A DNA stretch of 34,211 nt. It comes from Burkholderiales bacterium (lineage in GTDB: Bacteria > Pseudomonadota > Gammaproteobacteria > Burkholderiales > Burkholderiaceae_C). A program made the translations under genes and the position numbers. Shown piece after piece: positions 10,017 through 28,965 of this stretch (position 1 is the stretch's first letter; every line of letters begins with the position of its first letter). The stretch covers positions 1-34,211 of the forward strand of contig JAPLPO010000017.1 in assembly GCA_026400155.1 (NCBI GenBank), given 5' to 3'. Under the pieces are notes generated by a model. It ran no database searches, was not told the DNA's origin, and was given only the letters and a program-made list of their open reading frames with translations.

Positions 10017-11087
10017 ATGACAACACGCCAATGGTTTATCGCTATCTCAGCCATTTTGGTTTTGGGTACAACTGTCTTTTGGCACGCACGCGATGAAGCC
10101 ACTGTCAAACAAGCTCTGCCAGCCAAATTGCAATGCGAACTACCGCCCTCTTCTGCGGACGCGCCTAAACCCGGCATGGTTTGGATCCCTGAAGGCGTCT
10201 TCGACATGGGAGACAGTGTTTACCCAGAAGAGAAACCTGTTCGAAACGTGCGGGTCAGAGGTTTCTGGATGGACCGCACGGAAGTCACCAATGAAGAATT
10301 TGCTGCCTTTGTGAAAGCCACGGGCTATGTCACAGTAGCCGAACGGCCTGTCAATCCTCAATTGATGGCAAACTTGCCAGAAGACATGCGCAAGCCTGGC
10401 GCCGTGGTCTTCAAAGTGCCCGCCCAGCTCACGCATGGCGATGATCCGCGCCAGTGGTGGCAATACATTCCAGGCGCCAATTGGAAACAACCAGCAGGGC
10501 CTAACTCAAGCATTGACAATTTTGGCCAATTTCCTGCGGTGCACATCACTTACGAAGATGCCCAAGCTTATGCCCAATGGAAGGGCCATCGCTTGCCCAC
10601 TGAGGCAGAGTGGGAATGGGCCGCCCGTGCCGGTGCCAAGGCCTTGCCTGGCCAACACGATCAACCCGCCAGCGCCAACACATGGCAAGGTATTTTTCCC
10701 ATGGCCAATGCCAGCGAAGATGGTTTTGCAGGCTTAGCCCCTGTGGCGTGCTACGCGCCCAATGCCTATGGCCTGTTCGACATGGTTGGCAATGTGTGGG
10801 AGCTCACTGCCGATGTATTTGTGGCTGACAGGCCCGCAGTTTCCAGCAGCCAAGGTTCTAGCGCCAACCAAGGACTTGATCCTGATGAAGCGCAGCGACC
10901 GCCCATTTTTAAAACGCTTCAACCCAATTCGCAGACCAACTCTCAGCCGAAGACTCGCGTGATCAAGGGCGGCTCATTTTTGTGCGCCCCCAATTACTGT
11001 ATGCGATATCGTGCAGGGTCTAGGCAACCCCAAGAAGACGATTTGGCGGTGAGTCATTTGGGTTTTAGAACCATCTATCAGCCATGA
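10017..11087 (+). CDS. Formylglycine-generating enzyme (sulfatase-activating), membrane-anchored
   Basis: Oxidises the active-site Cys of type I sulfatases to formylglycine using O2 and Cu(I). The 356-residue protein has an N-terminal signal-anchor helix (about 6-22, WFIAISAILVLGTTVFW), then an FGE-sulfatase (SUMF1-like C-type-lectin fold) domain from MVWIPEGVFDMGD (54) to LGFRTIYQP. The copper-binding pair Cys323 and Cys328 is present in GGSFLCAPNYCMRYR, matching the CxxxxC of genuine FGEs, so this is not one of the Cys-less SUMF1 relatives. Also typical are RLPTEAEWEWAARAG at 192-206 and GLFDMVGNVWELT at 252-264. The helix implies action on the periplasmic side. It overlaps the DUF1254 gene by 4 bp and lies near two Cys-type sulfatase genes that are its likely clients. 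Confidence 0.92.
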   Translation: MTTRQWFIAISAILVLGTTVFWHARDEATVKQALPAKLQCELPPSSADAPKPGMVWIPEGVFDMGDSVYPEEKPVRNVRVRGFWMDRTEVTNEEFAAFVKATGYVTVAERPVNPQLMANLPEDMRKPGAVVFKVPAQLTHGDDPRQWWQYIPGANWKQPAGPNSSIDNFGQFPAVHITYEDAQAYAQWKGHRLPTEAEWEWAARAGAKALPGQHDQPASANTWQGIFPMANASEDGFAGLAPVACYAPNAYGLFDMVGNVWELTADVFVADRPAVSSSQGSSANQGLDPDEAQRPPIFKTLQPNSQTNSQPKTRVIKGGSFLCAPNYCMRYRAGSRQPQEDDLAVSHLGFRTIYQP

Positions 11088-12466
11088 AGATCGTAAAACG
11101 CTCACTCACTGCAGTGTTGGTTTTACTGGCCCTGGTAGCAGGCTTGGTGTTTGTCTTGAAAGACAAGATCACGCTGGGCGCTGAGGCTTATTTGTATGGC
11201 TACCCCTTGGTCATGATGGAGACCACGCGGGTTCACAGCGCGAAATACACCGGTCCTGAAAATCAGTTGCGCTTGGTCAGGCAATTTCCAAACGCTCAAT
11301 TCAAAGATGTGGTGCGCCCCAATGTCGACACGCTTTACACCACGGCATTCATTAGCATGAAAGAGGGTCCGTGGGTTTTTGAAATGCCCGCCAACGACAA
11401 GCGATATGAGTTGATGCCCTTCATGGATGCATGGACCAACGTGTTTGCATCGCCTGGCAGCAGAACTTCAGGCAATCAGGGCGCTACTTATTTGCTAGCC
11501 GGCCCGCAATGGCAAGGCACGGTACCCAAGGACATGACGCTTCTCAAATCGCCCACCGACATGGTTTGGCTGATTGGCAGAACACAAACCAATGGCACCG
11601 CCGATTTTGCGACGGTGCATGAATTGCAAAATCGCCTTCGTCTCACAAAATGGGACCCCAACTCCGGCACAGCATCCGTTGGCTCAGATTCTAAAAAGCT
11701 TGCGATATCAGCTTGGCAAGCCAGCACTGAGCCCGCCTTACCGCCCGTTGCACAAATGAAAGCAATGAGCACCCCCGAATTTTTCAATCGACTCATGCAA
11801 CTGATGGTGAGCAACCCACCTGCCCCAGAAGATGCCGCCTTCCTTGCACGTCTGGCACAACTTGAAATTAGGGCAGGGCAAGCAGTAGCGCTGCAATGGC
11901 ACAGTCATTTGAGTTTTGCCCTAGGCCGATGGATAGCTTACCAGCGCGTGATGAAGGCTTTGAACAACAAAGCCATTGATGGCAGTTGGTCGGTACCTCC
12001 CTTGAATCTAGGCCGTTATGGCACTGACTACAACACGCGTGCTGCAGTGGCCATGGTGGGACTTGGGGCCAACTTGCCAGAAGACGCCATCTACCCCAAC
12101 ACCGCACTTGACCATGAAGGCAAACCGCTAAATGGGCAGCATCGATATCGCATGCATTTTGCCTCCACGGCCTTGCCGCCCGTCAAAGCTTTTTGGTCCA
12201 TCACAGCCTATGGCGCTGATGAGTTTTTAATCGACAACTCCATTCAACGTTTTGCCTTGGGTGACAGAGATCCATTGGTATTCAATGCAGATGGCTCATT
12301 GGACATTTGGATACAAGCTACACCACCCGATCCCAAAGAAGCCCATGCCAATTGGCTACCTGTTCAAAAGGGCGCACCGTTTTTACTCAATGCACGTTTG
12401 TATTGGCCTGAAGACAGGGCATTGAACGGGCCATGGAAAATGCCCGTGGTGGAACGACTGAATTGA
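11084..12466 (+). CDS. DUF1254/DUF1214 domain protein, membrane-anchored
   Basis: Protein of 460 residues. An N-terminal hydrophobic segment (about 8-25, TAVLVLLALVAGLVFVL) looks like a signal anchor, so the bulk should face the periplasm. The first part shows the DUF1254 hallmark AYLYGYPLVMMETTR and RPNVDTLYTTAFISM; the C-terminal third shows the DUF1214 hallmark PVKAFWSITAYGADEFLIDN, IQRFALGDRDPL and ANWLPVQKG. No catalytic function is established for the family as far as I know. The ATGA overlap with the FGE gene shows translational coupling, so it probably serves the same pathway. It converges on the TetR gene with a 27-bp gap. Confidence 0.85.
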   Translation: MKIVKRSLTAVLVLLALVAGLVFVLKDKITLGAEAYLYGYPLVMMETTRVHSAKYTGPENQLRLVRQFPNAQFKDVVRPNVDTLYTTAFISMKEGPWVFEMPANDKRYELMPFMDAWTNVFASPGSRTSGNQGATYLLAGPQWQGTVPKDMTLLKSPTDMVWLIGRTQTNGTADFATVHELQNRLRLTKWDPNSGTASVGSDSKKLAISAWQASTEPALPPVAQMKAMSTPEFFNRLMQLMVSNPPAPEDAAFLARLAQLEIRAGQAVALQWHSHLSFALGRWIAYQRVMKALNNKAIDGSWSVPPLNLGRYGTDYNTRAAVAMVGLGANLPEDAIYPNTALDHEGKPLNGQHRYRMHFASTALPPVKAFWSITAYGADEFLIDNSIQRFALGDRDPLVFNADGSLDIWIQATPPDPKEAHANWLPVQKGAPFLLNARLYWPEDRALNGPWKMPVVERLN

Positions 12467-12493
12467 GAGACCCAAGTCAAATTCAATTCAGGC

Positions 12494-13123
12494 TCAAGTC
12501 ACTTGTTTCAAAACCAAATAATTTGAAATCAAGCCTTGCAAATAAGCCCTGATGTTGGGTGGATTCACTGGCCGACTCAAAGCTTGGTAGCCGCCCACAA
12601 TGGCCAAATAAAGTAGGGCTGCCAAATCACGCGCCTTAGCCTTGTCTTTCACAATCACCAAAAATTTGGACTCAAACAAATTCATGCGTTCAGCGTCCAC
12701 TTCCACCAACATTTGCGCAGCGCCTGCGTGCAAATGACTCAAGGCCCTCAAGGCTTGCTCGAAGCGAAGGTTTTCGAGCTCTGAGCCCGCTTGGTTGAAA
12801 GCAGCGTCCACCACAAATTCCAAATCTTGAATGGGATTGTGGCTGCGGTGCGATTTCAGTTTTTCATCCAGCTCGAGTTGGGACAATTTCCAACGCATCA
12901 GCAAGCTGTTGATCAAGTCGGCGTGGTCACTGAAGTGCCAGTAGAAACTGCCCCGCGTGACCTTGAGCTTTTCTGCAATGGCCAGAACTTTGACATTCTC
13001 AAAGCCGCCCGCCACCACCGCCTTGAAGGCTTCGTCTAGCCAATTGTCTCGGGATAACCGAGCGGCCTCAGGTGCCATCGATTTGGTCTTTTTGTTTTGA
13101 TGTGGTGTGTCCATGCTTGTCAT
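12494..13123 (-). CDS. TetR/AcrR family transcriptional regulator
   Basis: Protein of 209 residues. The N-terminal TetR-type DNA-binding domain spans about 25-75, with the helix-turn-helix reading VKVLAIAEKLKVTRGSFYWHFSDHADLINSLL, the characteristic RGSFYWHF ending. The C-terminal ligand-binding domain is variable and its ligand unknown. It is transcribed away from the outer-membrane-protein gene; the gap between them holds the perfect palindrome TACACATGTGTA, a natural operator candidate. It probably represses the island genes (and itself) until a substrate-derived inducer appears. ATG at 13123 chosen; ATG at 13114 is possible. Confidence 0.9.
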   Translation of the reverse strand: MTSMDTPHQNKKTKSMAPEAARLSRDNWLDEAFKAVVAGGFENVKVLAIAEKLKVTRGSFYWHFSDHADLINSLLMRWKLSQLELDEKLKSHRSHNPIQDLEFVVDAAFNQAGSELENLRFEQALRALSHLHAGAAQMLVEVDAERMNLFESKFLVIVKDKAKARDLAALLYLAIVGGYQALSRPVNPPNIRAYLQGLISNYLVLKQVT

Positions 13124-13223
13124 GCCCTATTTTGAAGCATGTCTGTTCGCCCCTTATATTGGCACTCGCTAGCGAAAACCCTAGACATGCATCGATCTTT
13201 GCTGTGCTAGAGTGAATTGTCAA

Positions 13224-13235
13224 TACACATGTGTA
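13224..13235. promoter_or_regulatory. Perfect 12-bp palindrome, candidate TetR operator
   Basis: TACACATGTGTA is fully self-complementary. It lies 89 bp from the TetR start and 29 bp before the start of the outer-membrane protein, next to a TTGTCA hexamer (13217-13222) that could serve as a -35 box. Position and symmetry suggest a regulator site; binding is inferred. Confidence 0.45.
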
Positions 13236-13264
13236 CTGATCAAACAACTATTTTGGAGACTCCC

Positions 13265-14419
13265 ATGACCGATTCCCTGCACAAAGCAACGCCCCGCCAG
13301 CTCGTTTTTGCGACGTTGCCGTGGGTCGCGCTACTGACCTGTGGCTTGAATGCACAAGCGGCTGAAAGTTTTAAATTGCGTCAAGCACCTGTCGGTGCCT
13401 TTGGCGGCGAGATTGCAGTTAGTGCAGACAAGCCCGGTTTTTTTGGGACGGCCAGCCTTACCCAATTGCAAATTTATAAAATTACCGACGCTTCTGGAAA
13501 CGATGTTGCACCTCCCCCAATTTCACCCATTCAACTGAGTCCCACACTGCCCAACAAAGTTGTGTTTCCAGCTGGCAGCTTGGCATTCAACCAAGACCAA
13601 ACACAATTGAATGTGGTGGGCGGTTATCTCACCGAAAGCACCTATGGCAATGGTCACATGGTGTTTGCAATCAACCTGCCTTTCATTCAGCAGAAGCGCA
13701 GTTACATCGTCACTCAACCTGCTGGAACCCTGACGCCTGCAGCAACCACTCCGCCTCTGCCTGCCACCGTAGTGACTCAGCTCAATGGTGGAACTGCCTT
13801 GGCCAACGCGGAAGTTCAAAAACGGGTTAACGCAGCCAGTGTTGCTCAGAATCTGGAAGTCTCAGGCATGGGCGATGCTGAGTTGTCCACTGTGTGGATA
13901 CGTCACGCCGATCGCCTGAAGGTTGCTGCGGGCGTGTCGCTATTTGTGCCAACAGGCTCCTACGACAAAACTCGCGGCCCCAACCCTGGCTTTGGCAACT
14001 TCTACACCTTGCGACCCGGCGTTGCCGTCACTTACAACTTGAACCCCAAACACTCAGACTCCAATTGGGATGCGGGTGTCAGCATCGCAGGCCGAGTGTC
14101 TTATGGCATCAATACCCGCAACAAAGACACCGATTACAAGAGTGGCAATTTTCTTTACGCTGAAGGCGGTATCGTGAAGGTCACTGGCGACTGGGCTTAT
14201 GGCGTGAATGTATTTACCACACAGCAAATTTCAGACGACACCGGAACCGGTGCGCCAGCTGATGGCAACCGCTACAAAACCAATGGTTATGGTCCCTTTG
14301 TGTCTTACAAGCTTCCCGGCAAAAATGCAGGTCTCAATTTGCAATTCAGCGACAACTTTGGTGGCCGCAATGCCATCGTCGCCAAAAGTCTGCAACTGCG
14401 TTTGATCAAGGCTTGGTAA
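13265..14419 (+). CDS. Outer-membrane MetA-pathway-type transporter (Phenol_MetA_deg family)
   Basis: Predicted outer-membrane beta-barrel of 384 residues. A signal peptide (to about residue 33, hydrophobic LVFATLPWVALLTCGL then NAQAA) precedes a mature region rich in alternating strands. Family-type segments are GGYLTESTYGNGHMVFAINLPF, VAAGVSLFVPTGSYDKTRGPNPGFGNFYTLRPGVAVTYNL and a barrel-closing C-terminus LQLRLIKAW with a terminal aromatic residue. Members occur in aromatic and hydrocarbon degradation clusters and are thought to aid uptake of hydrophobic substrates; transport has rarely been shown. The ATG at 13265 is preceded by TTGGAG at good spacing; an ATG at 13217 would pass through the palindrome. 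It is the first gene of the long plus-strand catabolic run. Confidence 0.82.
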   Translation: MTDSLHKATPRQLVFATLPWVALLTCGLNAQAAESFKLRQAPVGAFGGEIAVSADKPGFFGTASLTQLQIYKITDASGNDVAPPPISPIQLSPTLPNKVVFPAGSLAFNQDQTQLNVVGGYLTESTYGNGHMVFAINLPFIQQKRSYIVTQPAGTLTPAATTPPLPATVVTQLNGGTALANAEVQKRVNAASVAQNLEVSGMGDAELSTVWIRHADRLKVAAGVSLFVPTGSYDKTRGPNPGFGNFYTLRPGVAVTYNLNPKHSDSNWDAGVSIAGRVSYGINTRNKDTDYKSGNFLYAEGGIVKVTGDWAYGVNVFTTQQISDDTGTGAPADGNRYKTNGYGPFVSYKLPGKNAGLNLQFSDNFGGRNAIVAKSLQLRLIKAW

Positions 14420-14471
14420 TTCGGTCTTGATAGCCTAAGGTCAATGTGGTTTAGTTTCAAGCCTTACTTCA

Positions 14472-15680
14472 ATGACCGTTCGAAGTCTCAAGAGTTGGCT
14501 GATGCCCGTCATCAGCCAACATCTTTTATCTCGCAAACGCCTTCTGGCGCAGCGTGAAAAATCAGAGCTCAAACGCAACGCCCAACAGCGTCCTCACGTT
14601 TTGCATTTCTTCCATGAGTTGGAAGACTCCTATTCCCAGCTTTTAGCTCAAGCGATCCCCCTCCTTCAAAGCAGGTACGCCGTTTCTGTCGTACAACACC
14701 TGGTAGGGCAGCCCGACGATTCTGCTGTGCCCGAGCGTGACAAACTCAAGGACTACAGTGAGCAAGATGCCGCGCGTTTGGCCAAGCAATATGGACTTCA
14801 ATGGCCTCCCAGTACCCCATCGGTGCCCACTCACATTGGCAAAGAAGCATGGCTTAGCTCGCATCGCTTGCGAAAAAAGTGGGGGCACTATTTAAGTGGC
14901 GTGATTTATTACGAAGGTGAGTGGTATTGGGGCATAGACAGACTGCATCATTTGGAAGAACGGCTCAATGCGTTGGGTCTTTCAAAGCAAGCGCCATCGA
15001 CCAAAGTACGCGAACGACCGCCTCTCTTTTACACACCGCAGTACCAAAGCTTGGGGCGCGTCCCTGAAGGGACCAGCATTGATTTCTTTTTCTCATTGAG
15101 AAGCCCATACTCCGCCATCAGTTGCGCCAAACTATTTCCTTGGGCCAAAGAGCACGGCTTGAAAGTGAATATGCGTTATGTGCTGCCCATGGTCATGCGC
15201 GGTTTGCCAGTGCCCGCTGAAAAAAGAAAGTACATCAGCTTGGACGCGGCTCGCGAAGCCTATGTTCAAAACGTGCCTTTTGGCAGGCTCAACGACCCCT
15301 TAGGCAAGCCCACAGAGAGGGGCTTGGCGCTGATGCCGCTTGCTCAAATGCACGAGTTGGCCGAAGACTATGTCATGTCTTTCATGCGAGGGGTTTGGTC
15401 AGAGGGCTTGGACGCTGGCACAGATGCTCACCTTCAGATCATTGTGGAGCGATGTGGTCTGCATTGGCAGGCCGCCAAAGACATTCTTAAAAGTCAAAGC
15501 AATGAGCAGCATTGGCGGAGCGTTGCAGAGCAAAACAGGCAAGCACTTTTTGCGCTGGGCTTGTGGGGCGTTCCCTCCTTCAAATTTGAAGACACCGCAG
15601 TCTGGGGTCAAGACAGATTCTGGGTCATTGAAAAAGCTTTGCACGATCACTTTGATCTCGCCTCTCCCACTGAATCATGA
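14472..15680 (+). CDS. Two-domain DsbA/HCCA-isomerase-like thioredoxin-fold protein
   Basis: Protein of 402 residues, no signal peptide, so probably cytoplasmic. The C-terminal half (from about 197) resembles 2-hydroxychromene-2-carboxylate isomerase/kappa-class GST: IDFFFSLRSPYSAIS with the active-site-type Ser/Pro/Tyr, and the cis-Pro loop GLWGVPSFKF followed by WGQDRFWVIEKAL. The N-terminal half holds a second, diverged copy starting HVLHFFHELEDSYSQLLAQ, in which the same xxYS pattern occurs. No CxxC is present, so it is not a thiol oxidase; glutathione-dependent isomerisation or a conjugation/dehalogenation role is possible but unproven. Its stop overlaps the sulfatase start by 4 bp (ATGA), which ties it to that pathway. 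Confidence 0.75.
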   Translation: MTVRSLKSWLMPVISQHLLSRKRLLAQREKSELKRNAQQRPHVLHFFHELEDSYSQLLAQAIPLLQSRYAVSVVQHLVGQPDDSAVPERDKLKDYSEQDAARLAKQYGLQWPPSTPSVPTHIGKEAWLSSHRLRKKWGHYLSGVIYYEGEWYWGIDRLHHLEERLNALGLSKQAPSTKVRERPPLFYTPQYQSLGRVPEGTSIDFFFSLRSPYSAISCAKLFPWAKEHGLKVNMRYVLPMVMRGLPVPAEKRKYISLDAAREAYVQNVPFGRLNDPLGKPTERGLALMPLAQMHELAEDYVMSFMRGVWSEGLDAGTDAHLQIIVERCGLHWQAAKDILKSQSNEQHWRSVAEQNRQALFALGLWGVPSFKFEDTAVWGQDRFWVIEKALHDHFDLASPTES

Positions 15681-17488
15681 AATCCACCAGCAGTACCCTT
15701 CAAGTTTGGCTAGCCGTTTTGGCCAGCATTGCACTTCTCATCAGTACGCCTGCACAGGCCAAACGACCCAACATCGTTTTGATGTTGGCCGACGATTGGG
15801 GCTTCAGTGACGTGGGGGCTTTTGGCAGTGAAATTCAAACACCCAACCTGAACCAATTGGCCAAATCTGGCACTCGCTTTTCCAATTTTCATGTGAGTGC
15901 GTCTTGCTCTCCCACCCGATCGATGTTACTCACAGGCGTTGACAACCACCTGAATGGCGTGGGCAACATGCGCGAGGCCATTCCGCAATCGCATGTGGGT
16001 CGGGCTGGTTACCTGAGTGTGCTCAATCAGCGTGTGGTCACAGTGTCCAGTTTGCTGCAAGACAGTGGCTACCGAACTTATGTGGCTGGCAAATGGCATG
16101 TGGGCAAAGAACCGCACAACCTACCGCCAGCCAGAGGCTTTGACAGGTCTTTGGTCATGGGCGACAGCGGCTCCGACAACTGGGAAACAGGCAAACTTTA
16201 CTTAGACCTCACAGACAAGGTGTATTGGTACGACAACGGCCAAGAAGCCAAAATGCCCAAAGAGTTTTACTCCTCAGAGTTTTACATCGACAAAACGCTG
16301 GAGTACCTCAAAACCGATGCCAAATCGGACAAGCCCTTTTTTGCCTACATCGCTTTCCAAGCCAACCACATTCCTCTGCAAGCGCCCCAGTCTTTCATCG
16401 ACAAATACAAAGGCCGCTATGACGCGGGTTGGGATGTCTTGCGCAATGAACGCCGGGACAAAGCCATTGCCCTAGGGCTGATACCGGCCAATTCCAAAAT
16501 GGCCAACTTGCCCTCAACGCATGTGGCTTGGAATTCTTTGAGTGCCACGGACAAAGCCTATCAAGCTCGCCGCATGGAAGTTTATGCAGCCATGGCCGAG
16601 GCCATGGACTTTCAAATTGGCAGGCTCATTGCTCACTTGAAAGAAACTGGTGAGTACGACCAAACAGTGTTTATGTTCTTGTCTGACAATGGTGCGGAGG
16701 CCACCGACCCCTACGCCCTGGCAGTAGGACGCTGGTGGCTGGATCGACATTACAACCGCGATCTAGAACGATTGGGCAGCAAAGGAGCCTACAGCGTCAT
16801 TGGCCCAAACTGGGCAAGTGCCGCCTCATCACCATTGAGCACCTACAAGTTTTTTGCTGGTGAAGGCGGCATTCGGGTGCCCCTCATCATTTCGGGCATT
16901 CCCAACATGCCAAAGTCTGCCACCAATCGGGTGCATGCCAGCCTCACGCATGTGAATGACATCGTACCCACCCTGCTTGACTTGGCCAGCGTGCAACATC
17001 CCGGCACGGTCTACAAAGGACAAACCATCTATCCCTTGAGTGGTCACAGTCTGATGCCCGTCATTGCAGGCGATGCCATCAGAGTGCGAGGACCCGACGA
17101 AATATTGGGCTATGAGTTGTCTGGCAACAAGGCCTTGTTCAAGGGTGACTTTAAATTGCTCAGCAACTTGGCACCTGTGGGTGACGGCAAATGGCACTTG
17201 TACAACATCGTCAAAGATCCTGGTGAAACACAAGACCTGCAACATGAATTGCCCGATCTGTTTTTAAGCATGCAAGCCGACTATGCCAAATGGGCCAAAG
17301 CCAATGGTGTGCTTGAGATGCCTGACGGCTACGACCCCATTCAACAGGTCATCATCAATTCCTTGGTGTTCGTTTACTGGCCGCGCCACCAGATGCATTT
17401 GCTCGGGTTGTTTGCCATCTTGGTAATGGGATTGTTTTGGTTTTGGCGGCGACGCAAACATCGGCCTCTCTCGCAAGCGGTTCATTGA
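15677..17488 (+). CDS. Exported type I (formylglycine) sulfatase with C-terminal membrane anchor
   Basis: Hydrolyses sulfate esters. The 603-residue protein has a clean signal peptide (to about residue 28, hydrophobic core then STPAQA) followed by the sulfatase alkaline-phosphatase-like core: metal-binding IVLMLADDWGFSDVG at 33-47, the formylglycine motif CSPTR at 77-81 (Cys77 is modified), GKWHVG at 138-143, and the metal-binding FMFLSDNGAEATDP. Near the end a hydrophobic helix (about 575-590, LLGLFAILVMGLFWFW) followed by RRRKHR should anchor the periplasmic enzyme to the inner membrane. It needs an FGE, provided upstream. The class is certain; aryl versus alkyl sulfate specificity cannot be read from the sequence. 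Confidence 0.93.
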   Translation: MKSTSSTLQVWLAVLASIALLISTPAQAKRPNIVLMLADDWGFSDVGAFGSEIQTPNLNQLAKSGTRFSNFHVSASCSPTRSMLLTGVDNHLNGVGNMREAIPQSHVGRAGYLSVLNQRVVTVSSLLQDSGYRTYVAGKWHVGKEPHNLPPARGFDRSLVMGDSGSDNWETGKLYLDLTDKVYWYDNGQEAKMPKEFYSSEFYIDKTLEYLKTDAKSDKPFFAYIAFQANHIPLQAPQSFIDKYKGRYDAGWDVLRNERRDKAIALGLIPANSKMANLPSTHVAWNSLSATDKAYQARRMEVYAAMAEAMDFQIGRLIAHLKETGEYDQTVFMFLSDNGAEATDPYALAVGRWWLDRHYNRDLERLGSKGAYSVIGPNWASAASSPLSTYKFFAGEGGIRVPLIISGIPNMPKSATNRVHASLTHVNDIVPTLLDLASVQHPGTVYKGQTIYPLSGHSLMPVIAGDAIRVRGPDEILGYELSGNKALFKGDFKLLSNLAPVGDGKWHLYNIVKDPGETQDLQHELPDLFLSMQADYAKWAKANGVLEMPDGYDPIQQVIINSLVFVYWPRHQMHLLGLFAILVMGLFWFWRRRKHRPLSQAVH

Positions 17489-17503
17489 GCAAGCAACACC
17501 ACC

Positions 17504-18781
17504 ATGGCGCCATCTGGTTACTTTGACAGCCCTTGGCCTTGCGAGGATGCAGGGCCCTCTAGACTTCAAACACCTCACAACACGGCATGCCTGAATTTGC
17601 AACCGGGCATGAAACTGGCATGCACATCCAGACGCACACGGATGTCGACCATGACGGTATTGGGTGCGCCGGGCGAAGTGTTTTTGCTGACTCACTCAGC
17701 CGTTCGAGCGCAGCTGGGACTGGCCACCACGGCGCAGGTTTCTCGCATTGACCCCTTCACATTAGAAACACTCGAAAGCTCTCCAAGGCTAGAGGGCGGC
17801 CCCATGTGGCCAGGCGGCATGGCGGTTCATGCCAATGGTCACATCATGGTGGTTTACGGGCGATATGCACACAAACTCAACCGACATTGCCAACCAGTGG
17901 CTTCGTATTTATTGCCTATTCATGAACCCTACAACAGCTTTGTGGTACTCGACAATGGATTGATTGTGACCAAAAATCTGTCGGCCACCACCCCCGCGCA
18001 ACTCACCACCCTGAACCCCGAGAGCTTGCGAGTGGCCAGCAGCGATGTGGTGTGCCCCGAAGCTTCCATTGCGCGCCTTAGTGCCCATGGCAATACGGTT
18101 TATGTGGTGGGCGTCAGCCGCGTTTTCAGATACCACTGGCATGCATCTTCACAGCAATTGAAACGCGACCCTCATTGGGAGTTTCATTACCTCCAAGATG
18201 CACCGCAAAGCTATGGCTGGGACATGGTTATTGATGGCGAACACGGCTGGTTCATGGACAACGGCAAGCACAACTACTTGGTCAGCATGTTGGGTGCTGG
18301 CAGCCATTCAGCTGCCAACCGGCTCATTCGCGTATCACTGCACAATGCACAATCGCATCAAAGCTGGGAGGTCAGTGGCCTGCCTTATGGCAGCATTACC
18401 AATCCACCCTTGATCGATTTAAAGCGCCGTATTGTGGTGGGTTACGACTCTGCCAATCGACATCTGCGAGCCTGGAAAATAGATGCTGCGCACCATGGCA
18501 ATGCGCACGATGTTGAATTGACACCACTTTGGCATCACGCTCAATTGGGCGCCGCCAGCCACATGCTGCTTTTTGCCAAAACAGGCGAACTGTGCGTCAA
18601 TGACTACAGCCGCTTTAACGAGCAGGTTATTGTGTTGGACATTGAAACAGGTGAAGAAAAAGCGCGTGTGCAAACGGGTGGGCACATGCAAGGCGTGGTG
18701 TTTCCCAGTGTGGGCTGGCACCAAGATTTTTACTGGTCTTCCATGGACCGCCTGGCCCGAATTTACGTCCCCTCACATTAA
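17504..18781 (+). CDS. Beta-propeller-like protein of unknown function
   Basis: Protein of 425 residues, unrecognised family. The sequence is made of repeating strand-rich blocks with GG, NG and DNG turns (for example GGMAVHANGHIMVVYG, VVLDNGLIVTK, SAHGNTVYVVGVSRVFRY, SMDRLARIYVP), which looks like a six- or seven-bladed propeller of the SMP-30/PQQ-like type. No signal peptide is visible, although the neighbouring sulfatases are exported. The start is uncertain: the ATG at 17504 lies 15 bp after the sulfatase stop with no clear ribosome-binding site, and ATGs at 17609 and 17642 are possible. Co-directional tight spacing with the sulfatase and SDR genes suggests a shared pathway. A lactonase or sugar/alcohol dehydrogenase-like role is only a guess. 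Confidence 0.65.
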   Translation: MAPSGYFDSPWPCEDAGPSRLQTPHNTACLNLQPGMKLACTSRRTRMSTMTVLGAPGEVFLLTHSAVRAQLGLATTAQVSRIDPFTLETLESSPRLEGGPMWPGGMAVHANGHIMVVYGRYAHKLNRHCQPVASYLLPIHEPYNSFVVLDNGLIVTKNLSATTPAQLTTLNPESLRVASSDVVCPEASIARLSAHGNTVYVVGVSRVFRYHWHASSQQLKRDPHWEFHYLQDAPQSYGWDMVIDGEHGWFMDNGKHNYLVSMLGAGSHSAANRLIRVSLHNAQSHQSWEVSGLPYGSITNPPLIDLKRRIVVGYDSANRHLRAWKIDAAHHGNAHDVELTPLWHHAQLGAASHMLLFAKTGELCVNDYSRFNEQVIVLDIETGEEKARVQTGGHMQGVVFPSVGWHQDFYWSSMDRLARIYVPSH

Positions 18782-18793
18782 GCAAGCCTTTTC

Positions 18794-19585
18794 ATGACTA
18801 AAACCATATTGATCACAGGTGCTGGCTCTGGCATTGGCAAGGACTCGGCATTTGCCTTGGCCGCAAGAGGGCACCGCGTGTTGGCCACCACCCAAACTCA
18901 AGCTCAAGCAGAAGCACTTGCCCAAGAGTCTCAAAACAAGGGCATTCAGCTCGAGATTTTCAAGCTTGACATCACCCTAGACACTGACAGAAAGCTCATC
19001 GAGCCCTTTGCCATTGATGTTCTGGTGAACAACGCAGGCATGGGTGAGTCGGGCTCTTTGGCAGAGGTTGACATGCAACGTGTTCGGAAAATATTTGAGG
19101 TCAATTTGTTTTGCACACTGGAGCTCACCCAACTTGCATTGCGCGGCATGATTCAACGCGAAAAGGGAACTGTCTTGCTGGTGAGTTCTATCGCTGGCAG
19201 AGTTCCCATGCCCTTTCTCATGCCCTACAGCATGAGCAAATTTGCCCTTTCAGCTGCAGGGGCTGGTCTGCGCGCCGAAATGGATCAACTCAAAAAGAAT
19301 ATCCACATTGCACTCATTGAACCTGGTGCCATTCACACTGGATTTAACCAAGCCATGACCGACAGCAAATATGCGTGGATGGGGCCCTCCTCCTACTTTG
19401 CGCACCAAGCTCAGAAGATGCAAAAACAAGAGCGCGCTACGTTTAAATTTTTAGAAGCGAAAAGTACCGACGGCATCGTGAAGCAGATCATCAAAGCTTG
19501 CGAGTCCAGTCGGCCCAAATTGCGATACACGTCACCTTGGATTCAAGGTTTTGGCGTTCGAATGGCCAGAATTTTTGGAGTATAA
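18794..19585 (+). CDS. Short-chain dehydrogenase/reductase (SDR)
   Basis: NAD(P)-dependent oxidoreductase of 263 residues, cytoplasmic. Classical SDR motifs: cofactor loop TGAGSGIG at 8-15, NNAG at 79-82, and the catalytic triad Ser132 (VSSIAG), Tyr145 and Lys149 (YSMSK). The segment IEPGAIHTGF after the active site is typical. A Thr/Gln-rich patch follows strand two rather than a clear Asp, so NADP is slightly favoured. Twelve bp separate it from the propeller gene and 2 bp from the broken metallo-hydrolase gene. In this context it may oxidise the alcohol released by a sulfatase or dehalogenase, an inference only. Confidence 0.9.
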   Translation: MTKTILITGAGSGIGKDSAFALAARGHRVLATTQTQAQAEALAQESQNKGIQLEIFKLDITLDTDRKLIEPFAIDVLVNNAGMGESGSLAEVDMQRVRKIFEVNLFCTLELTQLALRGMIQREKGTVLLVSSIAGRVPMPFLMPYSMSKFALSAAGAGLRAEMDQLKKNIHIALIEPGAIHTGFNQAMTDSKYAWMGPSSYFAHQAQKMQKQERATFKFLEAKSTDGIVKQIIKACESSRPKLRYTSPWIQGFGVRMARIFGV

Positions 19586-19587
19586 AA

Positions 19588-20708
19588 ATGCGTATTGGAA
19601 AACTAGGGTCAGCCTTTATCGTCATTGCAATGCTTGCAGGCAGCCTGTATGCGTTTCGAGAACCTCTGAGTTTGGCCGTGGCCAAGCGCGTCACAGCGCA
19701 GCGCATGGGCAGCGATCCCCTCAAAGATTTACCCGATGGATTGCACATTGCCGTGTGCGGTGCAGGTTCACCCATGCCAGACGACAAGCGGGGGGGGCCT
19801 TGTACCTTGGTCGTTGCGGGCCAACAAATTTTTGTGTTTGACACTGGCAATACCAGCGCTCGCAACATCAATAAATTGGGATTCAATGCAGGCAACATTC
19901 AGGGCATCTTCCTCACGCACTTTCACTCAGACCATATCGATGGCTTAGGTGAATTGCTGCTCCAGCGATGGGTCTCCAATTCAAATACACAACCCGTTCC
20001 GGTGCATGGCCCCGAGGGTGTCGAAACCGTGGTCAACGGTTTCATGCAAGCTTATAGCCTTGATCGTGGCTATCGGGTAGCGCACCATGGCGAGGCCATT
20101 GTTCCAAGCAGTGGATTTGGCGCAAAAGCCGTTTCGTTCAAAACATTGTTCCAAGCAGTGGATTTGGCGCAAAAGCCGTTTCGTTCAAAACCCAAGCATT
20201 CGAAACCACGCTGGTGTATGACATTCAAGACACGAAAATTCACGCCTTCAGTGTGGCGCATGCCCCCATTCATCCTGCAGTTGGCTACAAAATTCAATAC
20301 AAAGACAGAAGCATTGTGATCAGCGGCGATACCACTCCCTCTGTGCATGTGACCAAGGCTGCGCAGGGTGTAGACGTACTGATACACGAGGCCATGTCGA
20401 TGGAATTAATGAAGCTGCTACAAGAAGGCGCAAAAACAGCCAAACGTGACAAGCTCGAACAAATCATGAAGGACATCACGGACTACCACACCTCGCCTGT
20501 TCAAGCTGCCGAAATTGCCCAGCAAGCGCAGGTGTCCTATTTACTGCTCAACCACATTGCGCCGCCACTTCCACTGCCAGGCTTGGTGGATGCGTTTCTA
20601 AAAGGCACAGCAGAAGTTTTCAAGGGCAAGATTCAAGTGGCCAAAGATGGCGATTTCTTGAGCTTGCCAGCAGGCAAGAAAAGCATTGACGTGAGTCATC
20701 GTTTTTAA
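19588..20708 (+). pseudogene. Metallo-beta-lactamase-fold hydrolase, frameshifted by a 47-bp tandem duplication
   Basis: Start at 19588 has a GGAG site 8 bp upstream. The first frame codes a signal/anchor segment (about 8-22), then an MBL-fold core with the zinc motif HFHSDH at 111-116 and HGPEG at 140-144. At about residue 186 a 47-bp tandem duplication (20098-20191) shifts the frame; translation then runs through unrelated residues to a stop at 20317-20319. Removing one copy joins SGFGAKAVSFKT directly to QAFETTLVYDIQDTK and restores a single frame to 20708, giving a 357-residue protein with VISGDTTPS, the IHEAMS His and the LNHIAPP end. Without repair only the first part, lacking later zinc ligands, is made. 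It could also be an assembly error. Confidence 0.9.
20098..20191. repeat. 47-bp perfect tandem duplication inside the MBL-fold gene
   Basis: Copies 20098-20144 and 20145-20191 are identical base for base; each begins ATTGTTCCAAGCAGTGG and ends TCGTTCAAAAC. The unit length is not a multiple of three, so it causes a +2 shift. The absence of any mismatch suggests a recent event (or an assembly artefact), and a perfect tandem repeat of this size could revert by slippage or recombination. Confidence 0.97.
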
Positions 20709-20755
20709 GTATTGAATTTTAAATTTTGAACACACTTAAAGATTGAAAAAAATCC

Positions 20756-21664
20756 ATGCGTCAATTGCCTCAGATCAAAAACTTTCTTCGCACACCCGAA
20801 GAAAGATTTCAAAACTTGCCCGACTTTCCCTTCACGCCTCATTACACCGAAATTGGCGGTTTGCGCATTGCGTATATCGATGAAGGCCCCAAGGATGGCC
20901 CTGTGGTCTTGCTCATGCACGGTGAGCCTGCTTGGTCTTTTCTTTACCGAAAAATGATTCCTGTGTTGGTCAATGCTGGCATGCATGTCTTGGTGCCCGA
21001 CCAAGTGGGTTTTGGCCGCACCGACAAACCCACCCAGCGTACAGACTACACCTATGAAAACCATGTGCAGTGGATGAGCGCTTGGCTTGAATCAGTGGAT
21101 GTCCAAGACATCACCCTTTTTTGTCAAGATTGGGGCTCGCTCATTGGCCTTCGCATGGTGGCTGAAATGCCAGAGCGTTTTGCCCGCATTGCCTTGAGCA
21201 ATGGCGGCTTGCCCACTGGCAATGAAAAAATACCGAAGGCATTTCACATTTGGCGCGCCTTTGCCATGTACAGCCCTTGGTTTCCCATTGGCAAAATTGT
21301 GCGTGCAGGTTGCGCACAGGGCCTGAGCGATGCCGCTGTAGCCGCCTACGACGCGCCCTACCCCAGCTCTAAATACGCAGTGGGTGCGCGGGTCTTTCCC
21401 ACCTTGGTGCCCATTCATCCCAGCAACCCAGCTCGCGAAGCCAATGAGCGGGCTTGGGAAATGTACAAAGCTTGGACCAAACCCTTCATCACCTTGTTCA
21501 GCACGCGCGACCCCGTGACCAAAGGCGGTGAAAAGATGTGGCAAAAAAGGGTACCAGGTGCTGCGGGCCAGCAGCACACCCAAATTCGTGGCGCAGGCCA
21601 CTTTGTGCAAGAAGACAAAGGGGAAGAAGTGGCGCAGGCCTTGGTGGCTTTTGTCCGCGCCTGA
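20756..21664 (+). CDS. Haloalkane dehalogenase, HLD-I (DhlA-like) type
   Basis: Alpha/beta hydrolase of 302 residues that cleaves carbon-halogen bonds in haloalkanes, giving the alcohol and halide. The oxyanion region HGEPAWSFLYRKMIPV (55-70) closely resembles DhlA. Nucleophile Asp125 with the halide-binding Trp126 sits in FCQDWGSLIGL. A cap-domain Trp (Trp166, HIWRAF) could be the second halide ligand. The acid Asp252 (LFSTRDPVTKGG) and base His282 (GAGHFVQED) complete an Asp-His-Asp triad, the HLD-I pattern. No signal peptide, so cytoplasmic. An AT-rich 47-bp gap separates it from the broken MBL gene. Epoxide hydrolase is the main alternative, but those lack the QDW motif with this cap. Natural substrate unknown. 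Confidence 0.88.
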   Translation: MRQLPQIKNFLRTPEERFQNLPDFPFTPHYTEIGGLRIAYIDEGPKDGPVVLLMHGEPAWSFLYRKMIPVLVNAGMHVLVPDQVGFGRTDKPTQRTDYTYENHVQWMSAWLESVDVQDITLFCQDWGSLIGLRMVAEMPERFARIALSNGGLPTGNEKIPKAFHIWRAFAMYSPWFPIGKIVRAGCAQGLSDAAVAAYDAPYPSSKYAVGARVFPTLVPIHPSNPAREANERAWEMYKAWTKPFITLFSTRDPVTKGGEKMWQKRVPGAAGQQHTQIRGAGHFVQEDKGEEVAQALVAFVRA

Positions 21665-21666
21665 AT

Positions 21667-23349
21667 TCAATTGCCGTAATAAATATATTCGTCAGAAGGC
21701 AGCGTGGGTTGTCGAAGGTGTTTGTCGATGGCAATGGCCGCCTCGGCCATGGAGGGCCAGCTGGGTTTGACTTGTGTGGCATTGAAAGCCTCCAGCTCTT
21801 TTTTCAGGAGGGCCACTCGCTCGGGCTCCTTCGCCGCCAAATTGGTTTGCTCAGTAGGATCGGCCGCCAAGTTGTAGAGCCAATCTTTTCTGGGGTTTTG
21901 CGTCACTTGCAATTTCCAATCGCCCTTGCGTATCACCCGATAAGAATCAGTTCGCCAGAACAAAGATCGCTCGGGGCCCTTTTCTGTCGGCTTGGCCAAT
22001 TGAGGGAAGAGATTGATGCCGTCCATCGGTCGATCGGTAGGCAGCTTGGTGCCAGTCGCCGCCGCCACAGTTGAAAAAATGTCCATATGGTTAACAGGCA
22101 GTTGCGGCTTCACACCCTTTGGAATGCCAACTGGCCAACGCATGAACATGGGGACGCGGATACCGCCTTCAAAGAACGTGGCCTTCCAGCCCCGATACGG
22201 TTTGTTCAAACCATCGAGGCCAACGTAATGCGCGCCGCCGTTGTCACTGGTAAAAATAACCAGTGTGTTGTCGTCCAAGCCCTTGTCTTTCAGTGTTTTC
22301 ATCAATCGGCCAATGTTGCGGTCTAGGTTGCGAACCATGGCCGCATAAACACGCAGTGTGTGGTCTTCAATGTGCGACAGTGCCTCGTAGTCTTCTTTGG
22401 TGGCTTGCAAAGGTGTGTGCGGTGCTGTGTACGCCAAGTAAAGAAAGAAAGGCTGATTGCGGTTAGCCTCGATGGCCTTTTCGGCCTCGTCTGTGAGGTA
22501 ATCGGTGACATAACGCTTGGGCTTAAAGAGTTCGCTGTTGTTAAAGCGCATGCCAAAACTACCGGCAGCCCATTGAAATCTGTCAATGATGTCAAACGAT
22601 TGCTGAGCGTTCACCACATTGGCATCTTTCTCTGGCAAGTACAAAGAGCTGGCATGTGGAAAAGACAAAGACTCATCAAAGCCATGCTCGTAGGCTCTAA
22701 ATTCGGGTGCATCTCCCAAATGCCACTTGCCCACATGAAGGGTTCGATAGCCTTGCCCCTTGAGCAACTTGGCCATGGTAATTTCCGAGCGTGGCAGTCC
22801 CATGGTTTCGTAAGGGATCAGATCTTTTTCGCGATCGGCGTGGTAGATGGCGTCATGAACTTGGTTGGGACCCTTGTAGTGGCCAATGACCTTCATAAAC
22901 TGCTTGGGCGTTGGGGTGAACTCAAAACCAAAGCGAGTGGGATAGCGGCCGGTCATCATGGCGGCACGTGAGGGCGCGCACGTGGCATTGCCCGAGTAGC
23001 TGGTTTCAAAATTGGCACCTTGCTGCGCCAAACTGTTGATATGGGGGGTGGGCACTGTGCCCTTGGCCAAGCCACCACCATTCAAGCTGATGTCGTTATA
23101 GCCCAAGTCGTCGGCCACGATCAGAATGACATTGGGGGGTTTGACGCCAGAACTGTTTTGTGGAATGGCAGCATTGCCCGATGGAATGGTCCAGGTCACT
23201 TCTCTGTTGGGCTCGTGCTCTACCCTGACAAAGACTTTCACGAACCACAAAAGGACCTCTGCTCTACCGCCTTTGGCGTAAAGTGCGCCCACCACCAAGA
23301 CAAACGAGGCGATGAGGACTCCGAGAGCAATGGCAATTTTTTTCAGCAT
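21667..23349 (-). CDS. Membrane-anchored type I (formylglycine) sulfatase
   Basis: Second Cys-type sulfatase, about 560 residues, transcribed toward the dehalogenase and ending 2 bp from it. The N-terminal hydrophobic segment (about 4-26, KKIAIALGVLIASFVLVVGALYA-like) has no clear cleavage site and probably anchors the enzyme facing the periplasm. Core motifs: VILIVADDLGYNDISL at about 74-89, the formylglycine motif CAPSR at 124-128, GKWHLG at 207-212, and VIFTSDNGG. The C-terminal part reads WRTDSYRVIRKGDWKL and DPTEQTNLA, as in arylsulfatase A-like enzymes. ATG at 23349 chosen; the codon before it is TTG. It differs clearly from the sulfatase at 15677, so the two probably act on different ester positions or substrates. 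Confidence 0.92.
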   Translation of the reverse strand: MLKKIAIALGVLIASFVLVVGALYAKGGRAEVLLWFVKVFVRVEHEPNREVTWTIPSGNAAIPQNSSGVKPPNVILIVADDLGYNDISLNGGGLAKGTVPTPHINSLAQQGANFETSYSGNATCAPSRAAMMTGRYPTRFGFEFTPTPKQFMKVIGHYKGPNQVHDAIYHADREKDLIPYETMGLPRSEITMAKLLKGQGYRTLHVGKWHLGDAPEFRAYEHGFDESLSFPHASSLYLPEKDANVVNAQQSFDIIDRFQWAAGSFGMRFNNSELFKPKRYVTDYLTDEAEKAIEANRNQPFFLYLAYTAPHTPLQATKEDYEALSHIEDHTLRVYAAMVRNLDRNIGRLMKTLKDKGLDDNTLVIFTSDNGGAHYVGLDGLNKPYRGWKATFFEGGIRVPMFMRWPVGIPKGVKPQLPVNHMDIFSTVAAATGTKLPTDRPMDGINLFPQLAKPTEKGPERSLFWRTDSYRVIRKGDWKLQVTQNPRKDWLYNLAADPTEQTNLAAKEPERVALLKKELEAFNATQVKPSWPSMAEAAIAIDKHLRQPTLPSDEYIYYGN

Positions 23350-23450
23350 CAACAGAACAAGCTTATGGTTTTGATAATTTGAATCTTAACTCTTTGACTT
23401 GACTGCCCCAGATCATAAAAAACCCTTTTAAAACAAGGCTGTCAAAGAAA

Positions 23451-23466
23451 CATACATGAATGTATG
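23451..23466. promoter_or_regulatory. 16-bp inverted repeat in the divergent sulfatase/PF10118 gap
   Basis: CATACAT (23451-23457) and ATGTATG (23460-23466) are exact complements around a GA centre. On the minus strand a TTGACA hexamer (plus-strand 23441-23446) follows just downstream, compatible with a promoter for the sulfatase, although no well-spaced -10 is obvious. Regulator-binding role is inferred. Confidence 0.4.
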
Positions 23467-23534
23467 GAAAATATAGCAAAATAAGCCATCACCGAGAAGC
23501 CCTCCAAAACCCTCGGTCCCCCTGAAAGAGCCTC

Positions 23535-24359
23535 ATGTCCGAACTTGCAGTTAGAAAATTATTGGTTGACCTCACAACGCCGTTCGAGCAGCGCTGGTGT
23601 GGTGGTGATGCTTTCAAGTCAGCTTTCTTCAATGCACTCTCTATGAGCTTTCCGGTTGGCGAGCAGTTTTTCATTGACTCCGTGCGTGAAGGTGCCAAGC
23701 AAATGGACCCCGCCATGCGCGAAAAATTTGCAGCCGAAGTTCAGGGCTTTATTGGCCAAGAAGCCACGCACCGCCGCATTCACGCTTTGTTCAATGGCCA
23801 CATTGAGCTTCAAGGTTTTAAAAATATCATTGCTGAGCGCTCAGCCAAGCGCATCAAAGCCAACGCGCATCAAAATGTGCGCCAACAGCTGGCGGCCACT
23901 GCGGCCACCGAACACTTTACTGACATCTTTGCCGATTGGTTGCTCAGCCACTCTGAAATTTTTGAAGGCACAGAGCCACGCCTCAGAACCATGTGGCAAT
24001 GGCATGCTGCTGAAGAAGCCGAGCACCGTTGCACTGCCTTTGACGTTTACAAAGCTTTGGGCGGCAATGAACAATGGCGCATCCGTATTTTTCACTACGT
24101 GACCTACACCTTCCTCACCGATGTGATGCTGCAAACCATGCACAACTTGTGGCGCGATGGCAGCTTGTTCAAGATCAGTACTTGGAAAAGCGGCTATCAG
24201 CTATTGCTCAGCAAGAACGGCTTGTTCAGAAGCAATTTTGGCCATTGGAAGGCTTATAAAAAAGCCGACTTCCACCCAGCTCAGCAGAGCGCTTTACTCT
24301 CTGAGCAATGGCTGCAAAACAATACCAGCGCTTACAGCTTGGTAGGCCGCAGCAGCTGA
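23535..24359 (+). CDS. PF10118-type predicted metal-dependent hydrolase with ferritin-like di-iron motif
   Basis: All-helical protein of 274 residues, soluble, function unknown. The N-terminus MSELAVRKLLVDLTTPFEQRWCGGDAFKSAFFNALSM and the metal-ligand pattern fit the PF10118 family. Visible acidic/His residues are Glu43 (VGEQFF), Glu76-x-x-His79 (GQEATHRRIH), Glu126-His127 (ATEHFTD) and Glu161-x-x-His164 (AEEAEHRC), with His157. This E..ExxH..E..ExxH layout is that of di-iron carboxylate proteins, so an oxygenase or desaturase-like role is as plausible as hydrolysis. It is divergent from the second sulfatase and shares its 185-bp upstream gap, suggesting joint regulation. Confidence 0.8.
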   Translation: MSELAVRKLLVDLTTPFEQRWCGGDAFKSAFFNALSMSFPVGEQFFIDSVREGAKQMDPAMREKFAAEVQGFIGQEATHRRIHALFNGHIELQGFKNIIAERSAKRIKANAHQNVRQQLAATAATEHFTDIFADWLLSHSEIFEGTEPRLRTMWQWHAAEEAEHRCTAFDVYKALGGNEQWRIRIFHYVTYTFLTDVMLQTMHNLWRDGSLFKISTWKSGYQLLLSKNGLFRSNFGHWKAYKKADFHPAQQSALLSEQWLQNNTSAYSLVGRSS

Positions 24360-25365: not shown

Positions 25366-25376
25366 GACAGTGATCC

Positions 25377-26369: not shown

Positions 26370-26427
26370 GAGAGTCTCCTGGTTGTTGTTGCAAGTTGGT
26401 ATTTCAAGTGATTTTCACATGCGTTTT

Positions 26428-28005: not shown

Positions 28006-28125
28006 AAAGCGCTTTATTAAAAAACTTGGGCTGGGCTGAATCCATCCCGAAGTGGGCCATGAAAAATTTCTGCACAGATTGAAAAGGCTTCTGTTACATT
28101 TCGATCGAATTGAAAGAAATGACAT

Positions 28126-28138: not shown

Positions 28139-28184
28139 CCAAATTATCCAAGACCAAGGCACTTTGGGCCCTAGTAGTTACCCC

Positions 28185-28922: not shown

Positions 28923-28965
28923 GCCTGAATACCCACCTAGGGTTTCTCCAGTGATGGCGGCTTGA

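What the first reader, a model, noticed from the sequence alone, without database searches (positions are those of the whole stretch)
10017..24359. Sulfatase + dehalogenase island: a possible pathway for molecules both sulfated and halogenated (chlorosulfolipid hypothesis)
One contiguous stretch holds an FGE, two dissimilar Cys-type sulfatases, a DhlA-like haloalkane dehalogenase, an SDR, an outer-membrane MetA-type protein, a TetR regulator, a DsbA/HCCA-isomerase-like protein, a propeller protein, a DUF1254 protein and a PF10118 protein. Three pairs are physically linked: FGE/DUF1254 and DsbA-like/sulfatase overlap by 4 bp, and the second sulfatase ends 2 bp from the dehalogenase. Sulfate-ester and carbon-halogen hydrolysis in one unit fits a natural substrate carrying both groups. 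Freshwater chrysophyte algae make chlorosulfolipids such as danicalipin A, a hexachloro docosane-1,14-diol disulfate, with two sulfate ester positions and secondary chlorines. That substrate is speculation; the gene set is directly seen.
Basis: partly seen in the sequence, partly recalled or inferred. Interest (0 to 1): 0.82.

Follow-up and report, generated by a model that had tools for sequence, protein, structure and literature searches.

The report
Conserved freshwater sulfatase–dehalogenase gene cluster
Some freshwater bacteria carry a conserved, apparently undescribed set of genes that pairs sulfate-removing enzymes with a halogen-removing enzyme, perhaps to feed on natural molecules bearing both groups, such as the chlorinated sulfated lipids of golden algae.

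Summary
All named genes are at the stated coordinates, and the dehalogenase is an HLD-I family member with its catalytic residues present. The gene set recurs: of 79 relatives of the first sulfatase (the best of 315), 35 have the dehalogenase 0.1-6.9 kb away, all on one side of the sulfatase tree; the other side has 0 of 30. Among 90 held genomes of the window's genus, 33 of 33 with the dehalogenase have the sulfatase, and 33 of 37 conversely; gene order differs between forms while the set is kept. Neighbours in a minority of relatives (SdsA1-type alkyl sulfatase, GMC oxidoreductase, acyl-CoA ligase, Baeyer-Villiger-like monooxygenase, GST) point to a sulfated aliphatic chain. I judge this a catabolic module for a halogenated alkyl sulfate, with chlorosulfolipids the leading, unproven substrate. 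Ten searches of an open-access library showed no description of it.

The parts
10017..11087 (+). formylglycine-generating enzyme (FGE) with N-terminal hydrophobic segment; would mature the Cys-type sulfatases
   Evidence: PF03781 1.7e-69; sequence holds GGSFLCAPNYCMR, the form seen in 16 of 25 FGE relatives in fetched loci
11084..12466 (+). DUF1254/DUF1214 protein with N-terminal hydrophobic segment, function unknown
   Evidence: hydropathy; solved relatives 3u07, 3vb9, 2p3y are uncharacterised; a relative in 16 of 35 dehalogenase-positive loci
12494..13123 (-). TetR-type regulator, divergent from the MetA-to-dehalogenase gene run
   Evidence: PF00440; a relative in 22 of 35 dehalogenase-positive loci
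13217..14419 (+). MetA-pathway-type protein, probable outer-membrane channel (inferred)
   Evidence: PF13557 1.3e-25
14472..15680 (+). DsbA/HCCA-isomerase-like protein with SLRSPY where a CxxC would lie; glutathione-dependent role inferred
   Evidence: PF01323 2.2e-15; alignment with the G316 copy
15677..17488 (+). sulfatase A: like the arylsulfatase 1hdh, hydrophobic N terminus and C-terminal membrane segment, CSPTR motif
   Evidence: PF00884 4e-60; 1hdh 432 bits; motif, hydropathy
17504..18781 (+). beta-propeller-like protein without Pfam match; no hydrophobic N terminus
   Evidence: AlphaFold pLDDT 91; PDB fold matches; hydropathy
18794..19585 (+). short-chain dehydrogenase/reductase
   Evidence: PF00106 1.8e-41
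19588..20708 (+). metallo-beta-lactamase-fold sulfatase-like gene with hydrophobic N terminus; frame broken here, whole in relatives
   Evidence: intact copy of L135 best matches arylsulfatase 8gyg 5.5e-22
20097..20190 (.). exact 47-bp tandem duplication that breaks the frame of the gene above (real or assembly artefact)
20756..21664 (+). haloalkane dehalogenase (HLD-I), no signal seen; D125, W126, W166, D252, H282 present
   Evidence: NF002043 444.8 bits, cut-off 265; PDB matches; residues in 37 of 37 sulfatase-linked copies, window included
21667..23352 (-). sulfatase B: like carrageenan S1 sulfatases, hydrophobic N terminus, CAPSR motif
   Evidence: PF00884 1.9e-61; 6prm 283 bits; motif, hydropathy
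23535..24359 (+). PF10118 protein; helical model, weakly like ferritin-like dimetal oxidases; E43, E76, H79, E126, E160, H164 invariant in 16 rows
   Evidence: AlphaFold; weak fold matches

Best explanation
This is one catabolic module, probably run by the divergent TetR regulator, that takes apart a natural aliphatic compound carrying both sulfate ester(s) and carbon-halogen bond(s). Proposed course (inferred): the substrate enters by the MetA-type channel; membrane-anchored periplasmic sulfatases (A, B and, where intact, the MBL-type one), the first two activated by the FGE encoded beside them, strip the sulfates; the freed halogenated alcohol enters the cell; the dehalogenase replaces a halogen by OH; the SDR (and, in some relatives, a GMC oxidoreductase, a Baeyer-Villiger-like monooxygenase with an esterase, and a GST) oxidise and cut the chain; an acyl-CoA ligase in some relatives feeds it into beta-oxidation. 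Shown: the genes, their motifs and their conserved linkage. Inferred: a shared substrate, its aliphatic nature, the compartments and the order of steps. Leading candidate substrate: chlorosulfolipids of freshwater algae (about 0.33).
For: Linkage: 35 of 79 sulfatase-A loci hold the dehalogenase, 127 bp to 6.9 kb away. On the tree of 80 sulfatases these 35 and the window lie on one 50-row side of a branch (support 98, midpoint root), and the other 30 rows have none; of 35 loci on that side with at least 4.3 kb downstream of sulfatase A, 31 have it. Genus, 90 held genomes: dehalogenase in 33, sulfatase A in 37, both in 33; 29 of the 33 on one contig with starts within 5.1 kb, the other 4 on different contigs. 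Other forms of the cluster in that genus (10 loci fetched) keep dehalogenase, sulfatase A, propeller and MBL in 10 of 10 and DsbA-like and SDR in 9 of 10, in other orders and orientations. Catalytic residues kept in 37 of 37 linked dehalogenases, E57 in 36. Neighbours: an SdsA1/sec-alkylsulfatase-like enzyme (2cfu 550 bits, 4av7 535 bits) and a GMC oxidoreductase next but one to the dehalogenase in two Undibacterium; acyl-CoA ligase, BVMO-like monooxygenase, esterase and GST in others. Eight dehalogenase-free sister loci, all Pseudomonas, have an alkyl sulfatase, a GMC and an acyl-CoA-ligase match together.
Against: No activity, expression or growth data. Three loci with 10 kb on both sides keep parts of the module without a nearby dehalogenase (L161 and L168 nearly all of it, L162 part); L172 keeps sulfatases A and B and a monooxygenase. 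L162's genome has a 68% copy on another contig, L168's copies of 48, 46 and 38%; L161's and L172's show none at E<=1e-40. Sulfatase B, PF10118, FGE and DUF1254 are less constant, and the sulfatase B counts mix two types. Of 35 dehalogenase-positive loci only 5 have the acyl-CoA ligase, 5 a BVMO-like gene, 2 the alkyl sulfatase; none of these was found in this window. The nearest structures of sulfatases A and B are an arylsulfatase and carrageenan sulfatases. Sulfatases look periplasmic and the dehalogenase cytoplasmic, so they need not share a molecule. The 79 loci and the genus genomes overlap (for example L135 is in G682, L176 in G316) and are not independent samples. Elsewhere in the class, 17 of 18 dehalogenase matches outside the own genome have no sulfatase A or B relative nearby.
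Confidence: 0.58

Rival explanations
1. An alkyl-sulfate (fatty alcohol sulfate) catabolic island without halogen: the dehalogenase-fold enzyme acts on another leaving group (for example displaces sulfate at carbon, or opens an epoxide) in the same pathway.
For: Sister loci in Pseudomonas have sulfatase A with alkyl sulfatase, GMC and an acyl-CoA-ligase match but no dehalogenase; dehalogenases and inverting alkyl sulfatases both cleave at carbon with inversion (recalled; PMC3725421 mentions both, seen as a search listing only).
Against: Nucleophile and both halide-binding Trp (roles recalled) are kept in 37 of 37 linked copies; the match to the dehalogenase model and to solved dehalogenases is strong.
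Confidence: 0.17
2. Sulfated and halogenated molecules of another skeleton (sterol or terpenoid sulfates, halogenated cyanobacterial or algal metabolites) are the substrate.
For: SDR, BVMO-like monooxygenase and esterase also fit ring-ketone cleavage; the esterase has a Steryl acetyl hydrolase match (1.3e-15) below its main Abhydrolase_3 match; PDB hits of the monooxygenase include steroid monooxygenase.
Against: Among 20 neighbour proteins scanned with Pfam and 10 of the set with NCBIfam none had a steroid-catabolism family as its best match; the long-chain acyl-CoA ligase and SdsA1-like alkyl sulfatase favour a chain.
Confidence: 0.13
3. Neighbouring but separate functions: sulfatases scavenge sulfate from mixed algal esters, the dehalogenase detoxifies haloalkanes, and they travel together as an ecological island.
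For: Different predicted compartments; some clusters lack the dehalogenase.
Against: Linkage kept through rearrangement and across several bacterial families, and presence or absence as a set in the genus.
Confidence: 0.12

Closest known systems
Haloalkane dehalogenase subfamily I (NF002043/PRK00870; PDB 6f9o, 4mj3, 5esr, 2xt0, 1b6g)
   Same: Full-length match over the curated cut-off; catalytic Asp, His, acid Asp and two halide-binding Trp present
   Different: Sits in a sulfatase gene run; 33 of 37 sulfatase-linked copies form one supported group apart from the 32 unlinked copies used
Alkyl sulfate (SDS) degradation modules, e.g. the Psychrobacter plasmid SLF operon (PMC10779009, abstract and passages seen) and SdsA1/sec-alkylsulfatase-type enzymes
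   Same: Sulfatase with alcohol oxidation and acyl-CoA ligation in a compact cluster; two Undibacterium loci carry an SdsA1-type enzyme
   Different: FGE-dependent S1 sulfatases and a dehalogenase as core; no SdsA1-type gene found in the window
Pseudomonas arylsulfatase (1hdh)
   Same: Sulfatase A aligns over about 520 residues, CxPxR motif kept
   Different: C-terminal membrane segment; clustered with the dehalogenase
MBL-fold arylsulfatase (8gyg)
   Same: Best PDB sequence match of the intact relative of the split gene, 5.5e-22
   Different: Hydrophobic N terminus; distant; frame-broken in the window

Membership tests
Haloalkane dehalogenase HLD-I | score over curated family cut-off | tested here: met
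   NF002043 444.8 bits, cut-off 265
Haloalkane dehalogenase HLD-I | nucleophile Asp, His base, acid Asp and two halide-stabilising Trp (roles recalled) | tested here: met
   D125, H282, D252, W126, W166; 37 of 37 linked copies
Haloalkane dehalogenase HLD-I | hydrolytic release of halide | not testable with these tools
   needs assay
FGE-dependent S1 sulfatases (A and B) | Sulfatase domain plus C-x-P-x-R motif | tested here: met
   PF00884; CSPTR and CAPSR in the window proteins
Formylglycine-generating enzyme | FGE domain with paired Cys (CxxxxC, recalled) | tested here: met
   PF03781; GGSFLCAPNYCMR
MBL-fold arylsulfatase | intact MBL-fold protein related to a known arylsulfatase | tested here: inconclusive
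   a relative's intact copy best matches 8gyg but also matches RNase Z models below their cut-offs; the window copy is frame-broken
SdsA1-type alkyl sulfate degradation island | type III alkyl sulfatase in the cluster | tested here: not met
   none among the 30 window ORFs scanned with Pfam; present in L164 and L183
Chlorosulfolipid catabolic pathway | growth, desulfation and chloride release on a chlorosulfolipid | not testable with these tools
   needs experiment

The most novel reading that the evidence does not exclude
This is the first genetic locus for bacterial breakdown of chlorosulfolipids: FGE-activated periplasmic sulfatases remove the primary and secondary sulfates, and an HLD-I dehalogenase whose natural substrate is a chlorinated fatty diol opens the chain to oxidation, so that freshwater Burkholderiales recycle the chlorinated membrane lipids of golden algae.
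Probability: 0.33. Interest if true: 0.87.

Novelty: new variant of a known kind. Interest (0 to 1): 0.68.

Why it matters
The natural substrates of most haloalkane dehalogenases are unknown and, as far as I recall, no pathway for microbial degradation of chlorosulfolipids has been described. A conserved cluster that ties a dehalogenase to sulfatases gives a concrete substrate class to test, in hosts of which strains exist (Limnohabitans, Undibacterium, Roseateles). If true it would add a chlorine- and sulfur-cycling step to freshwater food webs.

Tried and rejected
Rejected: that the linkage is a one-genome accident. Looked at from the dehalogenase side, sulfatase neighbours are not general: in the class draw (369 genomes) all 18 matches at E<=1e-60 outside the own genome were fetched with up to 20 kb, and only G316 has sulfatase A and B relatives beside it; in the order draw (300 genomes) 15 of the 26 best matches of other genomes were fetched so, with none (one genome, G049, is in both counts). 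Some of these stretches end at contig ends.

Genome-level co-occurrence in the class draw (368 genomes without the own one): dehalogenase of at least 47% identity in 12, sulfatase A at E<=1e-60 in 25, both in 4, expected 0.8, one-sided p 0.006. The 47% limit was chosen after seeing the list, kinship is not corrected for, and in 3 of the 4 genomes the genes lie on different contigs.

Plasmids: 67 records hold a sulfatase A relative at E<=1e-60, all under 60% identity, best listed 45.1%; their neighbours were not examined. A PDB profile search for the propeller gave no credible match. PF10118 fold matches are weak (best E 0.034). Both trees are quick searches; the dehalogenase tree has long branches (L169_HLD1 among them) whose places are unsure. 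Papers: ten searches showed no description of the cluster or of chlorosulfolipid-degrading bacteria; the library is open-access only and listings were capped. Passages were seen of PMC10779009, PMC13413282, PMC6629928, PMC11066093, PMC7081238 and PMC3920027; other papers as listings only.
Full report
WHAT IS THERE. The window is one whole contig (G000:C71) of a 2.69-Mb, 233-contig genome, 81% complete. Among the loci fetched with a complete cluster its nearest named relative is Limnohabitans sp. MMS-10A-178 (L135: sulfatase A 93%, FtsY 96%, RecJ 95%). From 13217 to 21664 seven genes run on the + strand with short gaps (MetA-type, DsbA-like, sulfatase A, propeller, SDR, MBL, dehalogenase), with the TetR gene divergent at 12494-13123; this looks like one regulated operon (inference from spacing). 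Upstream lies FGE-DUF1254; downstream sulfatase B (convergent) and PF10118. FtsY lies on one side, and a galactarate/glucarate set followed by a sigma factor on the other.

Between SDR and dehalogenase lies a metallo-beta-lactamase-fold gene read in two frames. Against L135 the window has an extra exact 47-bp tandem copy at 20097-20190 that shifts the frame. The intact L135 protein has an arylsulfatase, 8gyg, as its best PDB sequence match (5.5e-22), followed by metallo-beta-lactamase PNGM-1 and RNase Z entries. So the island has a third candidate sulfatase, of another enzyme class; whether it is really broken or an assembly fault is open. FGE, DUF1254, sulfatases A and B and the MBL protein have hydrophobic N-terminal segments (sulfatase A also a C-terminal one); dehalogenase, SDR, DsbA-like, propeller and PF10118 showed none (hydropathy only): desulfation outside, the rest inside (inference).

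IS THE DEHALOGENASE REAL. NF002043 444.8 bits (cut-off 265); best PDB matches are haloalkane dehalogenases 6f9o, 4mj3, 5esr. Nucleophile, base, acid and both halide Trp are kept in 37 of 37 sulfatase-linked copies (window and 36 from 35 loci), the Glu of the oxyanion site in 36 (roles recalled).

IS THE LINKAGE MORE THAN CHANCE. A scan of one genome for each of 84,980 species with a sulfatase A alignment gave 315 confirmed relatives, of which the best 80 (79 loci) were kept; the set is thus biased to close relatives. Of these 79, 35 hold a dehalogenase match, 127 bp to 6.9 kb away. In the tree of 80 sulfatases these and the window lie on one 50-row side of a branch (support 98, root at midpoint), and 0 of 30 on the other; of the 14 loci of the 50-row side without it, 10 end within 3.7 kb downstream of sulfatase A. 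Of 35 loci on that side with at least 4.3 kb downstream, 31 have it. In the 90 held genomes of the genus: dehalogenase 33, sulfatase A 37, both 33, neither 53 (Fisher p 1.6e-20, not corrected for kinship); 29 of 33 on one contig. The genus genomes and the 79 loci overlap, so these are not independent tests. Six of the 38 sulfatase matches in the genus cross one stop codon (not followed). Other forms of the cluster in that genus (10 loci fetched; sulfatase A 55-61%, dehalogenase 64-70% to the window) differ in order and strand but keep dehalogenase, sulfatase A, propeller and MBL in 10 of 10, DsbA-like and SDR in 9 of 10 (the tenth is a 6.1-kb contig). In the dehalogenase tree 33 of 37 linked copies form one group (support 99); L160, L174 and both L169 copies fall outside, so the pairing may have arisen more than once, but starred branches force only two changes.

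RESULTS AGAINST. L161, L162 and L168 have 10 kb on both sides and parts or nearly all of the module but no nearby dehalogenase; L172 (10 and 6.6 kb) has sulfatases A and B and a monooxygenase only. A search of the genomes behind 11 chosen loci found a 68% copy on another contig in L162's, 48, 46 and 38% copies in L168's, and none at E<=1e-40 in those of L161, L172 and of the two Pseudomonas loci L177 and L191. The module can thus exist without it, at least in those assemblies. In the class draw 17 of 18 dehalogenase matches outside the own genome, and in the order draw 15 of 15 fetched, are not beside sulfatase A or B relatives.

WHAT THE SUBSTRATE LOOKS LIKE. In Undibacterium umbellatum and U. 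pigrum (L164, L183) the dehalogenase is followed, after one gene on the other strand, by a GMC oxidoreductase and a type III alkyl sulfatase; the latter matches 2cfu SdsA1 at 550 bits and sec-alkylsulfatase 4av7 at 535 bits. The same loci have an FMO/BVMO-like monooxygenase, an alpha/beta esterase and a second SDR upstream, the usual set for secondary alcohol to ketone to ester to acid plus alcohol (recalled). An acyl-CoA ligase relative sits near PF10118 in L157, L160, L161, L163, L165, L166; the L160 protein matches long-chain acyl-CoA ligase models (below their cut-offs). A GST relative is in 9 of 79 loci. On the dehalogenase-free side eight Pseudomonas loci combine sulfatase A, alkyl sulfatase, GMC and an acyl-CoA-ligase match of about 35%; P. 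laurylsulfatiphila (L191) has only a weak ligase match and a distant sulfatase B relative. These point to sulfated aliphatic chains; the dehalogenase would mark the version for halogenated ones. They are a minority: of 35 dehalogenase-positive loci 5 have the ligase, 5 a BVMO-like gene, 2 the alkyl sulfatase. Chlorosulfolipids fit: they are known from the freshwater chrysophytes Ochromonas danica and Poterioochromonas malhamensis (PMC13413282, passages); danicalipin A has two sulfates and secondary chlorines (structure recalled). Limnohabitans grows on algal-derived substrates (PMC3591437, start of abstract in a listing).

VERDICT. Observation confirmed and extended; unity of the module well supported; aliphatic substrate moderately supported; chlorosulfolipid identity plausible and untested. 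The parts are known families; the combination is, as far as the ten searches show, undescribed.

Noticed in passing
window 24379-32981: A galactarate/glucarate catabolic set (two TctC receptors, GarD, GntR-type regulator, GudD, aldolase, epimerase-like gene, KDG kinase) lies directly beside the island; TctC and GarD relatives flank the cluster in several Limnohabitans-like loci.
   Followed up: partly
window 23535-24359: PF10118, named a metal-dependent hydrolase, has invariant E43, E76, H79, E126, E160, H164 in 16 rows and a weak fold likeness to dimetal oxidases (R2-like ligand-binding oxidase, AurF): perhaps an oxygenase.
   Followed up: partly
L147, L149, L150, L151, L156, L157, L161, L166, L173, L225 (L225 repeats L149's contig): A further sulfatase, 46-51% like sulfatase B and mostly beside FGE, has CTVSR or CTISR instead of CxPxR: is it still converted by FGE?
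   Followed up: no
L173, L187, L154: Contigs binned as Singulisphaera, Planktophila and Bordetella parapertussis carry the cluster or parts of it and group with proteobacterial rows on the sulfatase tree; the bin labels are probably wrong.
   Followed up: no
L081 (G000:C56): A second, distant dehalogenase-like gene (32%) outside the cluster groups with copies of the same genus and family.
   Followed up: no
genus genomes: Six of 38 sulfatase A matches cross one in-frame stop; position and meaning not examined.
   Followed up: no
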